Assembly: GCA_001657295.1 (NCBI GenBank)
Contig: LYSW01000021.1
Location: forward strand, 1 to 41,173
Direction of reading: 5' to 3'
DNA from: Oceanicaulis sp. BBD 1991-10
GTDB taxonomy: Bacteria; Pseudomonadota; Alphaproteobacteria; Caulobacterales; Maricaulaceae
DNA: 41,173 bases
This document shows positions 4,179 to 9,884 of the stretch, one piece after another. The notes under the pieces were generated by a model that searched no databases, was not told the DNA's origin, and saw only the letters and a list, made by a program, of their open reading frames with translations. Made by a program: the position numbers and the translations under genes. Position 1 is the stretch's first letter. The number at the start of each line of letters is the position of its first letter.

Positions 4179-5504
4179 ATGTCCGACACCATTTATGCGT
4201 TGGCGAGCGCGCCCGGCCGGGCCGGCGTGGCGGTGATCCGCGTCAGCGGCCCGATGGCGGGAGAGATGCTGGACCGGCTGTGCGGCGGGCGCCCGCAGCC
4301 AAGGAAGGCGAGCTTGCGGCGCTTCACGGATGTTGATGGCGGCCTCATAGACGAGGGTCTGGCGTTATGGTTTCCAGCACCCGCGAGCTTCACCGGCGAG
4401 GACAGCGCTGAGTTTCAGGTTCACGGAGGCCCGGCGGTCATCGCCGCCCTGCTGGGGTCGTTGTCCGACGCCGGGGCAAGGGCGGCCGAAGCGGGTGAGT
4501 TCAGCCGGCGGGCGTTCGCCAACGGCCGGATGGATTTGACGGAGGCGGAGGGCCTCGCGGATCTGATCGACGCGGAGACCGAAGGACAGCGCGCCCAGGC
4601 TCTGGCTCAGATGACGGGTTCGCTGAAAGCGGTGTATTCGAGCTGGCGCGAGACGCTGATCACCATCCTCGCGGCGCTGGAGGGGGAAATTGACTTCCCC
4701 GATGAAGAGGACGTGCCTGAGGATTTGTCCTCCAGGGCGTCGGCGCCGCTTGCGGCTTTGATGGAGGAGCTGTCTCAGCATCTCGATGATGATAAGCGGG
4801 GCCAACGTGTCCGCGAGGGCTTCGTCGTCGCGCTGATCGGCGCGCCGAATGCCGGGAAGTCTTCGCTGTTGAATCGTCTGGCGCGGCGAGACGCGGCGAT
4901 CGTCACGGACATCGCCGGCACGACGCGCGATGTGGTGGAGGTCCGTCTGGTGCTCGGCGGATTTCCGGTGATCTTGGCGGATACGGCGGGGGTGCGCGGA
5001 GCGTCAGACGGGGGGGAGGCGGAGGGCGTGCGGCGCGCGCTCGCTCGGGCCGAAGACGCGGACCTTCGGATCGGCGTGCTCGATGTTTCACGTGAAACAG
5101 GGCTGGGGACGCTCGAGAGGCGTCTGACACCTGGCGATGGACTGGCGCTGAACAAGGCGGATCTCGCGGCGGTGGAAATCCCCGTGCCGCAGGGCGTCTG
5201 CGCGCACCGGGTGTCCGCCCGGACCGGCGAAGGGCTCGAGAAGCTCGAGCAATGGCTGGAGGCGGTTGTCGTGGAGCGCTTGTCCTCTCGGGAGGCCCCG
5301 GCGCTGAGCCGCGCGCGGCACCGGGAGGGCGTAAGCCGGGCTCTGGCCCATTTGCGGGCGGCGTCGGCGCAGGTCGGGAGCGCGCCGGAACTGGCTGCGG
5401 CGGAGATCCATTTGGGCTTGCGGGCGATTGAGGGCCTGACCGGGCGGATTGATGTTGAAGACGTGCTGGACCAGGTCTTCAGCCAATTCTGCATCGGGAA
5501 ATAG
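4179..5504 (+). CDS. mnmE: tRNA modification GTPase MnmE
   Basis: This 441-residue protein works with MnmG to install the carboxymethylaminomethyl group on U34 of certain tRNAs. The N-terminal tetrahydrofolate-binding domain ([21 protein letters not shown]) is followed by helices and the inserted G domain: G1 GAPNAGKS (221-228), G2 TDIAGTTRD (243-251), G3 DTAG (268-271), G4 NKAD (325-328). The protein ends in the conserved FCIGK with the functional cysteine near residue 438. A perfect parS site lies inside the gene at 5084-5099 and encodes residues 303-307 (VSRET) between G3 and G4. The gene follows DUF6489 and precedes mnmG by 100 bases. Confidence 0.98.
5084..5099. promoter_or_regulatory. 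parS centromere site 1 (inside mnmE)
   Basis: TGTTTCACGTGAAACA is a perfect 16-base palindrome identical to the classical chromosomal parS consensus bound by ParB. It is read through as D-V-S-R-E-T-G in mnmE. The parA and parB genes lie about 3-4 kb downstream. Confidence 0.95.
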
Positions 5505-5604
5505 ACACAAAGGGCCGGCGCGCTCGACTCCGGCGTCGGGACTGCCTATATCGGCGCTCCACGGCGCGCTCCGGCCAGCGCCCGTTTTGTCTCCTGGATG
5601 TTCG

Positions 5605-7494
5605 ATGCGCACACTGGATCCAAATCTCGCTCAGGCGAAGACCTGGGATGTCATCGTCATCGGCGGTGGTCACGCCGGTTGCGATGCGGCGAGTGCGGCT
5701 GCGCGTCTCGGCGCCATGACGCTCCTTTTAACCCATAAGGCGGCGACCATCGGCGAGATGAGCTGCAATCCGGCGATCGGCGGGCTCGGCAAGGGCCATC
5801 TCGTTCGCGAGGTGGACGCCATGGACGGCCTGATGGGCCGGGTCGCCGACGCCAGCGGAATTCAGTTTCGACTGCTGAACCGGTCCAAGGGTCCGGCCGT
5901 GCGTGGTCCGCGCACGCAATCGGATCGCCGGCTGTACCGCGAGGCGATGCAGGCGGAGCTCGGCGCGCTCGACGGGCTCTCCATTGTCGAAGCCGGCGTC
6001 GAGGACCTGGTCGTCAAGGATGGCCGCTGCATTGGCGCGATCGACGACGCCGGGCGATGCTATGCGGCCGGAGCCGTTGTTCTCACAACGGGGACATTCC
6101 TGAAGGGCGTGATTCATCGCGGCGCTGAACGCATTCCAGCCGGACGCCACGGGGAGAGGCCGTCGATCGGATTGTCGGATCGCCTGTATGGTCTTGGTTT
6201 GCGCATGGGCCGGCTGAAGACCGGCACGCCGGCGCGGCTGGACGGCTCGAGCATTGATTGGGCCAGCCTGGAGATGCAGGCTGCGGATGCTGAGCCGGCT
6301 CCCTTTTCCTTCCTGACTGACCGGATCACCGTGCCTCAGCTGGCTTGCGGCATCACCCGCACGACAGCTGAGACGCACAGGATCATTGCGGAAAATCTTG
6401 ATCAGTCGGCCGTGTATGGCGGCGGCGTGTCCGGGCGCGGACCGCGCTATTGCCCCTCCATTGAAGACAAGGTCGTTCGGTTTGAGGATCGGTCCAGCCA
6501 TCAGGTCTTCCTCGAACCGGAAGGGCTGGATGACGACACCGTCTATCCGAACGGCATCTCCACCTCCCTTCCGACCGATATTCAGGACGCGTTTCTCAAA
6601 ACGATACCGGGCCTGGAGCGGGCCGTCGTGCGCCGCCATGGCTACGCCATCGAATATGATTATGTGGATCCGCGTGAGCTATCGGTCACGCTTGAGGTGA
6701 AGGCGTTGCCGGGGCTCTGGCTGGCGGGTCAGATCAACGGAACGACGGGCTATGAGGAGGCGGCCGCTCAGGGTTTGATGGCGGGGTTTAACGCAGCGCT
6801 GAGCGCCGCGGGGTCCGAGCCGCTGATCCTCGATCGCTCGCAAGCCTATATTGGCGTGCTGATTGACGATTTGACGACGCGGGGTGTGACGGAACCGTAT
6901 CGCATGTTCACATCGCGGGCCGAATACCGGCTTACGCTTCGCGCGGACAACGCCGACCAGCGCTTGACGGAAATCGCCATCGGTTTGGGGGCCGCCAGTG
7001 TTTCACGTGAAACATCCTGGCAAAAAAAGGCCGCCGCGCTGGCGGACGCCCGGGCGCAGGCGAGTGCGCTCAATCTGACGCCGGCTGAAGCCTCACGCCA
7101 TGGGCTGAGAGTGAATGAAGACGGCAAGCGTAGGAATCTGTTCGAGCTTCTCAGCTACCCGAACACCAGCTGGGCGGACATTGTCCGAATATGGCCGGAT
7201 CTGGGTGCTTGGCCGGCCGCGGTGGTCGAGCAAATTGAAATCGACGCGGTCTATCACGGCTATATCGATCGCCAGCAGGCCGACATCATCGCCTTCCGGC
7301 GCGATGAAGCGGTCAGGATCCCGACGGCGTTCGACTATGCCGCTGTGGGCGGTCTGTCGAATGAGGTGCGCGAGAAGCTCGAACTGGCGCGGCCCGGGAC
7401 GTTGGGGCAAGCGGCGCGGATCGAGGGCGTGACGCCTGGCGCGCTCACGGCGTTGCTCGCCGCGCTGAAGCGAAGAAACCGTCAGTCCGCATGA
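5605..7494 (+). CDS. mnmG: tRNA uridine 5-carboxymethylaminomethyl modification enzyme MnmG (GidA)
   Basis: This 629-residue FAD enzyme is the partner of MnmE. The dinucleotide-binding motif GGGHAG is at residues 20-25 ([16 protein letters not shown]), followed by GidA signatures: the Cys-containing [23 protein letters not shown]-like stretch, [32 protein letters not shown] and the second motif [15 protein letters not shown]. The open frame extends upstream to 5449 but would overlap the end of mnmE; the ATG at 5605 matches the family's usual N-terminus and length. A perfect parS site at 6999-7014 encodes VSRET at residues 466-470. Its TGA overlaps the rsmG ATG by four bases. Confidence 0.98.
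6999..7014. promoter_or_regulatory. parS centromere site 2 (inside mnmG)
   Basis: This is a second exact copy of TGTTTCACGTGAAACA, 1,915 bases after site 1. It is read in mnmG as S-V-S-R-E-T-S, the same codon phase as the other two sites. Confidence 0.95.
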
Positions 7495-8129
7495 GCAAGA
7501 CCGGCTTCGGGCCCGCTGAATTTCAGCGCGAGACTGGTGTTTCACGTGAAACACTCGATCGCTTCGAGCAATGGCGCGCCCGACTCGCAGAGGTGAACGC
7601 CCACACCAATCTGGTGGGCCGGTCGACCCTTGAACAATTCTGGCACCGCCACGCCCTCGACAGCTGGCAGGTTTATCAATTGGCGGCCGATGCCCCGCGC
7701 TGGGCCGATCTTGGCTCCGGCGCCGGCTTTCCCGGCCTCGCCATCGCCTTTGGCCTGATGGGCCGCGGCGTGCCTGAGCCGATGGTCCACCTTGTGGAAT
7801 CCGTCGGCAAGAAAGCCCGCTTTCTCAGCGCGGTCGCGGAGGCCGCCGCCGCTCCGGTCCGCGTCCATCCGGTGCGGGTCGAGGCGCTGGCTGAAATCCC
7901 CGAAGTCGACGTCGTGACCGCCCGCGCGATGGCGCCGTTGCCCAGACTCCTGGGATATGTGCAGCCCTTTGTGGAAAAGGGGGCGGTCGCGCTTCTTCCC
8001 AAGGGTCGAAACGCGAAGGAAGAATTGACCCTCGCGCGCAAAAGCTGGACCTTTGAGGCCAAGGTCATTCCGAGCCATACCGACCCGGAAGCCTCGATAT
8101 TGGAAATCAGGGGGCTTCATCGTGCCTGA
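7491..8129 (+). CDS. rsmG: 16S rRNA (guanine527-N7)-methyltransferase RsmG (GidB)
   Basis: This 212-residue SAM-dependent methyltransferase modifies G527 of 16S rRNA. The family landmarks are HTNLVG (38-43), the HALDS motif and the SAM-binding loop [10 protein letters not shown] (73-82), with [14 protein letters not shown] further on. It begins within the mnmG stop codon (ATGA) and its own last codons overlap the predicted GTG start of parA. The third parS site at 7538-7553 encodes residues 17-21 (VSRET); the preceding residues 13-15 happen to be RET as well. Loss of this enzyme in other bacteria gives low-level streptomycin resistance. Confidence 0.97.
7538..7553. promoter_or_regulatory. parS centromere site 3 (inside rsmG)
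   Basis: This is a third exact copy of TGTTTCACGTGAAACA, 539 bases after site 2 and about 0.6 kb before parA. It is read in rsmG as G-V-S-R-E-T-L. Confidence 0.95.
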
Positions 8130-8958
8130 CTCAGCATCGGATTCCTCGCCGAAGGTCATCGCCGTCGCCAACCAGAAGGGCGGGGTGGGCAAAACCACCA
8201 CGGCCATCAATCTGGCCACGGCGCTGGCGGCGATCGGGCAGAATGTCGTGGTCCTTGATCTTGATCCCCAGGGCAACGCCTCCACCGGCCTGGGCGTCGG
8301 CCGCGCCGAACGCACTGCGACGAGTTACGACATACTGGTCGCCGACAAACCGATCGAAAGCGCGCTGATCGACACCAGCGTGCCCGGCCTGTCCATCATT
8401 CCGTCCGATGTGGATCTGTCCGGCGCCGAGCTGGAATTATCCAATGCGCCGCGGCGTTCCTATCGTCTGCGCCATGCCATTGAGCGCTTCCGCAAGGCGC
8501 TTCGGGCCCAGGGCGAGACCTGCGATTATATCCTGATCGACTGCCCGCCCTCGCTGAACCTTTTGACGGTCAACGCCATGACGGCGGCGGATTCGGTCAT
8601 GGTGCCGCTGCAATGCGAATTCTTCGCGCTGGAAGGCTTGAGCCAGCTGATGCGGACGATCGAGCTGGTCCGCAGCAATCTCAACAAGTCACTGGTTATT
8701 CAGGGCGTGGTCCTGACGATGTATGACAAGCGCAACAATCTCTCCGGCCAGGTCGCGGCCGATGTTCGCGAGCATTTCGGCGACAAGGTGTATGACACGG
8801 TCATACCGCGCAATGTCCGTGTCTCCGAGGCGCCCAGCTTCGGCAAGCCGGTGCTCCTATACGATCTGGAATGCGCCGGCTCGCAGGCCTATCTGGGCCT
8901 GGCGCGCGAGGTCGTCCATCAAGAGCGCAGCGGCGCGGAGGCGCTGGCCCCGGTATGA
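8122..8958 (+). CDS. parA: Chromosome partitioning ATPase ParA
   Basis: This 278-residue deviant-Walker ATPase drives movement of ParB-parS complexes during chromosome segregation. The signature-lysine Walker A box KGGVGKTT is at residues 19-26, followed by VVLDLDPQGNASTGLG and the Walker B segment YILIDCPPSL. I place the start at the GTG at 8122, preceded by a GGGGG tract at 8110-8114, because the longer open frame (from 8053) runs far into rsmG and adds residues that ParA proteins lack. The gene therefore starts eight bases before the rsmG stop and its TGA overlaps the parB ATG, so rsmG, parA and parB look translationally coupled. Confidence 0.96.
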   Translation: MPDSASDSSPKVIAVANQKGGVGKTTTAINLATALAAIGQNVVVLDLDPQGNASTGLGVGRAERTATSYDILVADKPIESALIDTSVPGLSIIPSDVDLSGAELELSNAPRRSYRLRHAIERFRKALRAQGETCDYILIDCPPSLNLLTVNAMTAADSVMVPLQCEFFALEGLSQLMRTIELVRSNLNKSLVIQGVVLTMYDKRNNLSGQVAADVREHFGDKVYDTVIPRNVRVSEAPSFGKPVLLYDLECAGSQAYLGLAREVVHQERSGAEALAPV

Positions 8959-9884
8959 GCAAGGATGAGGAGCGCCCGCGCACGCGCGGCCTTGGCCGTG
9001 GATTGTCCGCCCTGCTTGGTGAGGGCGAAGCGGTCGACGCCGCGCGCGATTACGACGCGGCCGAGCCTGGCGCCCCGGCTGGCGGGCTCCGCATGGTGCC
9101 GATTGAATATCTTGAACCGAATCCGGATCAGCCGCGTCGAAGCTTCGGCGAGGCGGAGCTCGCGGAACTGGCCGAATCCATAGCGGAAAAAGGCGTCCTC
9201 CAGCCCATTCTGGTCCGACCGCTCGCCGGTGCGGACGAGCGCTATCAGATTGTTGCGGGCGAACGGCGCTGGCGCGCCGCGCAACGGGCGCGCATCCACG
9301 AGGCGCCGTGCATTATTCGCGAGCTGACCGATCGAGAAACGCTGGAAATCGCCATTGTCGAGAACGTCCAGCGGTCCGATCTTAATCCGGTCGACGAAGC
9401 CCGGGCGCTGCGCCAGCTGGTGGAGACTTTCGGTCATACCCAGGAAGAGGTCGCCCAGGCGCTCGGCAAGTCCCGCGCTCATATCGCCAATACGCTGCGC
9501 CTTCTGGCTCTGCCGCAATCGGTATTGACGCGTCTGGAGGCCGGTGAGATTTCAGCCGGACACGCCCGCGCCATCCACAGCGCGCCCGATCCCGATGCAT
9601 TGGCCGGCCAGATCGTCCGCGATGGATTGTCTGTGCGCGCAGCCGAAGCGCTCGCACGGTCCGCCGCCGGCCGCACGGAGAAGAAGGGCGGCGCCGCGCC
9701 GCCGACTCCGCAAAAGGACGCGGACACTCGAGCGCTGGAAACGGATTTGTCGACCCGGCTCGGCCTCGATGTCGAAATCCTTCATTCCGGCGAGCGAGGG
9801 GAGGTGCGGGTCAGATTTCGCTCGCTGGAGCAGTTGGACGACATATGTCGCCGCCTCACCCAGGACGGGAATATCAATCACTGA
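8955..9884 (+). CDS. parB: Chromosome partitioning protein ParB
   Basis: This 309-residue CTP-dependent DNA clamp loads at parS. The N-terminal ParA-stimulating peptide is RGLGRGLSALLG (11-22). The ParB/Srx CTPase domain carries LEPNPDQPR (53-61), the C motif GERRWRA (102-108) and ENVQRSDLNPVDEA (136-149). The helix-turn-helix lies around 162-183 (TQEEVAQALGKSRAHIANTLRL), and a C-terminal dimerisation domain starts near residue 250 after a charged linker. The frame is open upstream to 8871, but the ATG at 8955 overlaps the parA stop (ATGA) and gives the normal N-terminus. Its three targets sit 1.4-3.9 kb upstream. Confidence 0.97.
   Translation: MSKDEERPRTRGLGRGLSALLGEGEAVDAARDYDAAEPGAPAGGLRMVPIEYLEPNPDQPRRSFGEAELAELAESIAEKGVLQPILVRPLAGADERYQIVAGERRWRAAQRARIHEAPCIIRELTDRETLEIAIVENVQRSDLNPVDEARALRQLVETFGHTQEEVAQALGKSRAHIANTLRLLALPQSVLTRLEAGEISAGHARAIHSAPDPDALAGQIVRDGLSVRAAEALARSAAGRTEKKGGAAPPTPQKDADTRALETDLSTRLGLDVEILHSGERGEVRVRFRSLEQLDDICRRLTQDGNINH

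What the first reader, a model, noticed from the sequence alone, without database searches (positions are those of the whole stretch)
5084..7553. Three perfect parS sites, each encoding Val-Ser-Arg-Glu-Thr in the same frame of three consecutive genes
The exact 16-mer TGTTTCACGTGAAACA occurs at 5084-5099, 6999-7014 and 7538-7553, inside mnmE, mnmG and rsmG. Each time the phase is the same (GTT TCA CGT GAA ACA), so each protein carries VSRET at a different structural place: residues 303-307, 466-470 and 17-21. Three independent gains in one of six possible readings is possible by chance, but selection for a tolerated peptide, or copying of a short cassette, is also possible. It shows that a DNA site can impose a recurrent peptide on unrelated proteins.
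Basis: seen in the sequence. Interest (0 to 1): 0.7.

Follow-up and report, generated by a model that had tools for sequence, protein, structure and literature searches.

The report
Centromere sites writing VSRET into proteins
Three ordinary bacterial centromere (parS) sites lie inside three neighbouring genes and each writes the same five amino acids into its protein; a survey of relatives indicates that the DNA is what is selected, and that the host protein limits where, and in which of only two readable frames, such a site can settle.

Summary
In detail: the exact 16-mer is at 5084, 6999 and 7538 and nowhere else in the genome at up to 2 mismatches, giving VSRET at MnmE 303-307, MnmG 466-470 and RsmG 17-21. 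But the site is a perfect palindrome with three readings, not six; one contains TGA, leaving only VSRET and FHVK. Three alike is P=0.25 under even choice and about 0.41 at the measured frequencies: unremarkable alone.
In 181 alphaproteobacterial loci, 185 of 186 VSRET peptides in five proteins are parS DNA at up to 2 mismatches: the DNA is selected, the peptide is a by-product. Genic parS do prefer VSRET: 28 against 10 distinct positions in Alphaproteobacteria, 13 against 5 elsewhere (not significant alone; combined p=0.0007), without clear help from near-matches or codon usage. Sites sit where site-free relatives carry similar residues in that register. MnmG became parS in both frames six residues apart, each on conserved residues. 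No sign of a copied cassette. This is a normal ParABS cluster; the measured protein filter is the mildly new part.

The parts
5084..5099 (.). parS site 1, inside mnmE; encodes VSRET at residues 303-307, in the loop after the strand 296-302 of the model
   Evidence: AlphaFold2 model, mean pLDDT 88.1, block 301-310 at 86
6999..7014 (.). parS site 2, inside mnmG; encodes VSRET at residues 466-470, the first turn of the modelled helix 466-488; Arg468 falls on a near-invariant Arg of MnmG
   Evidence: model mean pLDDT 91.6; column 681 is R in 154 of 155 loci without this site
7538..7553 (.). parS site 3, inside rsmG; encodes VSRET at residues 17-21, near the N-terminus; the commonest parS position in the alphaproteobacterial loci examined
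   Evidence: 125 of 181 RsmG carry the site here at up to 2 mismatches; structure not modelled
4179..5504 (+). mnmE (tRNA-modifying GTPase), host of site 1
   Evidence: ORF; aligned with relatives
5605..7494 (+). mnmG/gidA (tRNA-modifying enzyme), host of site 2
   Evidence: ORF; aligned with relatives
7491..8129 (+). rsmG/gidB (16S rRNA methyltransferase), host of site 3
   Evidence: ORF; PF02527 match at 7560-8063
8122..8958 (+). parA (partition ATPase); exact start uncertain
   Evidence: ORF; tblastn matches to it in 180 of 181 loci, window included
8955..9884 (+). parB, the presumed binder of the three sites; carries Arg/Thr/Ala/Gly at the four positions that set parS preference in Caulobacter ParB
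   Evidence: PDB 6t1f at E=1.4e-76; specificity residues from passages of PMC7383237; positions matched by eye on the alignment

Best explanation
The three sites are functional parS, the nucleation sites of the ParABS chromosome-segregation system encoded immediately downstream. Shown here: selection holds the DNA sequence, because the peptide is practically never written with other codons. Shown statistically: the site can be read in only two frames, and the VSRET frame is taken about three times as often. Sites sit where the protein already has, or readily accepts, the encoded residues in that register (for example R on a conserved Arg of MnmG, or F..K on a conserved aromatic..Lys). Inferred: sites arise one at a time by point mutation under pressure to keep several parS near parAB in a gene-dense operon, and proteins veto positions and frames that harm them. 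VSRET (polar, suited to a loop or helix start) passes the veto more often than FHVK. Inferred from breadth: in this genome the RsmG site is the oldest, the MnmG site younger, the MnmE site the most restricted. ParB binding itself was not measured.
For: The sites lie 0.6 to 3.0 kb upstream of parA and nowhere else in the genome at up to 2 mismatches. ParB has the parS-type specificity residues. 302 of 398 genomes of the order hold the exact 16-mer, with 0 for the backwards-read control in the rows listed; 12 of 13 other genomes of the genus hold exactly three. 185 of 186 VSRET in five proteins are parS DNA at up to 2 mismatches. Mismatches at the RsmG column are bimodal: 125 loci at 0-2, 6 at 3-4, 46 at 6 or more, 4 not scored. 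Frame counts are 28:10 distinct positions and 72:23, 44:11 or 37:11 parsimony gains depending on costs, plus 13:5 from Pfam-confirmed genes outside Alphaproteobacteria. Opportunity is about even: 335:288 windows at 6 mismatches and 1427:1753 at 7; codon usage favours FHVK. Register fit: mean percentile 0.82 against 0.57 shuffled, 0.49 shifted and 0.45 for the other frame, n=34; ungapped subset 0.85 against 0.60, n=14.
Against: No binding was measured. 13:5 alone is not significant (p=0.096). In mnmG the raw counts lean the other way (25 VSRET to 34 FHVK genome-sites). Near-matches at 4-5 mismatches favour VSRET (98:66), so part of the bias could be opportunity, unless these are decayed sites; 8-mismatch windows favour FHVK (4542:6393). 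The MnmE position of the window fits poorly (AAAGA in the nearest site-free pair of that cluster, percentile 0.67), and some other positions do not fit at all (0.24-0.49). Part of the fit may be a relic of lost sites: it falls to 0.67 (against 0.54 shuffled, p=0.012, n=17) when only relatives with 11 or more mismatches are used. Aligners favour similar residues in gapped loops; only 14 of 34 positions were free of that. Parsimony gains rest on one approximate tree.
Confidence: 0.85

Rival explanations
1. Chance with no peptide-level effect: the sites are parS, the palindrome has two open frames, and three sites happened to share one.
For: P(3 alike)=0.25 under even choice; FHVK sites are common in mnmG (34 genome-sites at up to 1 mismatch); loci mix frames freely, with 4 of 11 loci that have exactly three genic sites in the five genes being all VSRET; 13:5 outside Alphaproteobacteria is not significant alone.
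Against: Pooled frame counts depart from even (41:15, p=0.0007), although opportunity at 6-7 mismatches is about even and codon usage leans the other way; the register fit exceeds shuffled, shifted and other-frame controls.
Confidence: 0.25
2. Peptide first: VSRET is itself useful in these proteins (for example a shared binding motif) and the DNA site is secondary.
For: It recurs in unrelated proteins (MnmE, MnmG, RsmG, ParA, ParB and others).
Against: VSRET is almost never written with other codons (1 of 186 beyond 2 mismatches). Homologues without the site carry other residues there. The peptide lies in different structural contexts in MnmE and MnmG. The other reading, FHVK, also occurs.
Confidence: 0.02
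3. A short parS cassette was copied from one gene to the others by local recombination.
For: The three sites are identical, close together and in one phase.
Against: Exact identity extends 0-1 base beyond the 16-mer in every pair, and the flanks are no more alike than random phase-matched pairs from mnmE and mnmG. In other lineages mnmG has its site in the other frame at a neighbouring column. The three columns have very different breadth.
Confidence: 0.03

Closest known systems
Chromosomal ParABS of Caulobacter crescentus
   Same: ParB is a close homologue (PDB 6t1f) with the same four specificity residues; its parS sites are clustered within the roughly 10 kb occupied by ParB near the origin and lie within essential genes or genes of high fitness cost (passages and section 16 of PMC5815017). 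That these genes are around parAB is recalled.
   Different: Seven putative sites there, three exact ones here. The passages and the section that I read do not discuss the encoded peptide or the frame.
Intragenic parS of Pseudomonas aeruginosa
   Same: One of ten parS is predicted to be intergenic and the nine others most likely lie in coding sequences; those were mutated without altering the proteins (passages of PMC4368675).
   Different: No frame or peptide statistics in the passages read.
DNA uptake sequences of Pasteurellaceae and Neisseriaceae
   Same: A short DNA site spread through genes with an uneven reading: one orientation is commoner in reading frames, and some annotated ORFs start with the site because it holds an ATG (passages of PMC2346458), as with MFHVK here. 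That such sites leave recurrent peptides is recalled (Karlin 1996, seen only in that paper's reference list; Findlay and Redfield 2009, recalled, not held).
   Different: Hundreds to thousands of copies there (abstract, listing), and orientation matters; parS are few, clustered and palindromic, which leaves exactly two usable frames.

Membership tests
parS of the ParABS system | 16-bp palindrome matching the parS consensus | tested here: met
   three exact matches; that this 16-mer is the parS consensus is recalled and given in the finding
parS of the ParABS system | cognate ParB with parS-type specificity residues | tested here: met
   Arg, Thr, Ala, Gly at the positions equivalent to 173, 179, 184 and 201 of Caulobacter ParB (alignment, positions, matched by eye)
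parS of the ParABS system | clustered near parAB, and rare elsewhere in the genome | tested here: met
   all three within 3.1 kb of parA; none elsewhere in the held assembly at up to 2 mismatches
parS of the ParABS system | conserved as DNA in relatives | tested here: met
   302 of 398 genomes of the order have the exact 16-mer; RsmG column bimodal
parS of the ParABS system | bound by ParB and needed for segregation | not testable with these tools
   needs ChIP-seq or mutagenesis
parS of the ParABS system | close to the replication origin | not tested
   the assembly is in 89 contigs; oriC was not sought

The most novel reading that the evidence does not exclude
Across bacteria the placement and frame of centromere sites inside genes is governed by the host proteins: parS DNA settles where the residues it encodes already match or are tolerated, with a roughly threefold preference for the VSRET reading. 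A chromosome-segregation element thus leaves a recurrent, predictable peptide signature in unrelated proteins, and protein structure in turn limits where centromeres can evolve.
Probability: 0.6. Interest if true: 0.5.

Novelty: new member of a known kind. Interest (0 to 1): 0.38.

Why it matters
parS inside genes are known, but I saw no count of what they do to the proteins in the listings of my searches of the held library. It also suggests a rule for annotators: VSRET or FHVK[HQ] near parAB is probably a parS footprint and not a protein motif.

Tried and rejected
Cassette copying: rejected for lack of flank similarity (seen, computed). Peptide-first: rejected on codons. A first broad frame count by greedy ORF choice (80 loci; 29 VSRET to 11 FHVK at 150 aa or more) was replaced by stop-to-stop ORFs in all 118 stretches with Pfam confirmation, because many FHVK ORFs begin at MFHVK and are doubtful starts. 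In one search the printed lines 'VSRET/VSRE with >=3 mm' are not valid for RsmG, because alignment gaps split the peptide; the ungapped count is used instead. One search timed out and was rerun faster.

Rows dropped before counts. Alphaproteobacterial frame count: sites at up to 1 mismatch and inside the tblastn-homologous body only; sites in the ORF but upstream of the homology were left out (32 exact ones: 16 mnmG, 15 rsmG, 1 mnmE), as were sites outside the five genes; 1 of 181 loci was too short for the tree. Broad count: only ORFs of 120 aa or more with the site at least 12 residues from the start and 8 from the end were sent to Pfam. Of 87 such ORFs, 36 had a Pfam match at E of 1e-6 or better. 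Dropped from these: 9 alphaproteobacterial ORFs of mnmE, mnmG and rsmG (a group covered by the other set), 1 other alphaproteobacterial ORF (L343, VSRET), and 3 with doubtful N-termini (L246 FHVK; L303 and L309 VSRET). The remaining 23 ORFs (17 VSRET, 6 FHVK) were collapsed by gene and approximate position, judged by residue number and not by alignment, to 13:5; counting the three sites of L306 and the two of L330 apart gives 15:6 (p=0.078). Register fit: 37 of 38 positions had a usable relative, 34 a full aligned peptide.

Full report
Observation. The exact 16-mer occurs three times in the window and is absent elsewhere in the held assembly at up to 2 mismatches. Each copy is read GTT TCA CGT GAA ACA. 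It gives VSRET at MnmE 303-307, MnmG 466-470 and RsmG 17-21. Because the site is a perfect palindrome, both strands read alike. The three readings are CFT*, VSRET and FHVK, so a gene can use only two. Three alike is P=0.25 under even choice.

What it is. The genes run mnmE-mnmG-rsmG-parA-parB. ParB matches Caulobacter ParB (PDB 6t1f, E=1.4e-76). By that alignment it has Arg, Thr, Ala and Gly at the four positions that set parS preference (passages of PMC7383237). 302 of 398 genomes of the order hold the exact site; 12 of 13 other genomes of the genus hold exactly three and one holds two. These are ordinary parS by every feature I could test; binding was not testable. Named neighbours suggest that the organism is in the order of Brevundimonas (B. 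terrae, L327, whose MnmG is 87% identical to that of a member of family f3). The window's own family f1 holds the closest match of a Robiginitomaculum contig (L249, 80%).

Relatives. I fetched the locus from 180 further genomes: 80 of the order and 100 of the class, chosen by hand from the 130 and 117 genomes with a match (which include the window's own). 136 of the 181 loci (window included) hold at least one exact site. Of 263 exact sites, 171 lie in an ORF of mnmE, mnmG or rsmG (32 of them upstream of the homologous part) and 92 do not. At the RsmG column 125 of 181 have the site at up to 2 mismatches, 6 have 3-4, 46 have 6 or more, and 4 could not be scored. The MnmG VSRET column has 12 sites in 167 aligned; the MnmE column has 7 in 156. 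So the three sites differ greatly in breadth, which argues that they did not arise together. Their flanks are no more alike than random phase-matched pairs, and exact identity extends 0-1 base beyond the 16-mer.

DNA or peptide? In the five proteins VSRET occurs 186 times: 129 on the exact DNA, 37 at one mismatch, 19 at two and 1 at four. Among the 125 RsmG sites the 16 positions are 0.83-1.00 conserved, while most flanking positions are 0.3-0.7 (the rows were chosen at up to 2 mismatches, which inflates this, but the distribution is bimodal). Selection is on the DNA.

Which frame? Inside the homologous body of the five genes, at up to 1 mismatch, 38 distinct positions split 28 VSRET to 10 FHVK. 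Parsimony gains are 72:23, 44:11 or 37:11 for gain:loss costs of 1:1, 2:1 and 5:1. Two-sided p for 28:10 is 0.005. The TGA frame appears only in two degenerate matches of 2 and 3 mismatches. Opportunity, as numbers of coding windows near the site in the VSRET and FHVK phases, is 98 against 66 at 4-5 mismatches (some may be decayed sites), 335 against 288 at 6, 1427 against 1753 at 7 and 4542 against 6393 at 8. With an expected VSRET share of 0.55 the one-sided p is 0.014. Codon usage favours FHVK (geometric mean 0.92 against 0.54; in the window 0.57 against 0.30). After dropping alphaproteobacterial and doubtful rows and collapsing homologous positions, the count is 13:5, p=0.096 alone and 41:15, p=0.0007 combined. 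Raw mnmG counts lean to FHVK (25:34 genome-sites). At the pooled ratio, three alike has P=0.41; 4 of the 11 loci with exactly three genic sites are all VSRET.

Why these places? For each position I took the nearest site-free relative and ranked its aligned peptide against all peptides of that protein. The mean percentile is 0.82 (n=37, p=5e-7). For the 34 with full peptides it is 0.82, against 0.57 for shuffled peptides, 0.49 for shifts of 1-3 residues and 0.45 for the other frame's peptide. Using only relatives with 11 or more mismatches, to reduce relics, it is 0.67 against 0.54 (n=17, p=0.012). In ungapped surroundings, to reduce alignment bias, it is 0.85 against 0.60 (n=14), and 0.78 against 0.55 with 9 or more mismatches (n=9, p=0.014). 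The cluster that includes the window's MnmE position is a weak case (0.67), and a few positions fall below 0.5.

The MnmG hot spot is the clearest example. In 12 loci, mostly of the own family, VSRET lies at column 679. In 34 loci FHVK lies six columns further, at 685. Among loci without the first site, column 681 is Arg in 154 of 155; among loci without the second, the FHVK columns are Phe, Tyr or Trp in 123 of 131 at the first place and Lys in 114 of 131 at the fourth (each set includes loci with the other site). So each frame puts its own residues on conserved ones. In the model this is the start of helix 466-488. In MnmE the peptide lies in the loop after strand 296-302. RsmG was not modelled; among 46 RsmG without the site the first place is A, L, V or I in 39 and the second S or T in 27.

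Known or new. parS within essential or costly genes of Caulobacter (PMC5815017, passages and section 16 read) and in coding sequences of Pseudomonas (PMC4368675, passages) are known. Uptake sequences show uneven reading in genes (PMC2346458, passages). I saw no count of parS reading frames in the listings of my searches; the 2007 survey of parS by Livny and colleagues is recalled and was neither sought nor read. The finding is a new member of a known kind, with a modest new measurement.

Noticed in passing
L306: 18-33, 301-316, 535-550, 754-769: A Paceibacterota contig has four exact parS within about 750 bp; three lie in one O-antigen-ligase-like ORF, all in the VSRET frame.
   Followed up: no
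G322, G339, G321, G228, G356: A few genomes of the order have 8-13 exact parS where most rows show 0-4; whether these are chromosomal, duplicated or plasmid-borne was not checked.
   Followed up: no
L265:4749, L277:7068: Two betaproteobacterial MnmG carry VSRET at or near the start of the C-terminal helical domain, close to the alphaproteobacterial hot spot; a recurrent landing place for parS is suggested but was not aligned.
   Followed up: partly
L245:4748, L254:4946, L274:1107, L289:1550: Several FHVK sites sit at the very start of an ORF (MFHVKH or VFHVKH): when A or G precedes the site, parS itself supplies an ATG or GTG, which may mislead start annotation.
   Followed up: partly
L319:1447, L336:1030, L346:4803: Streptomyces parA ORFs as called here carry a parS-encoded VSRET in an N-terminal stretch ahead of the ATPase domain; the true start was not checked.
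   Followed up: no
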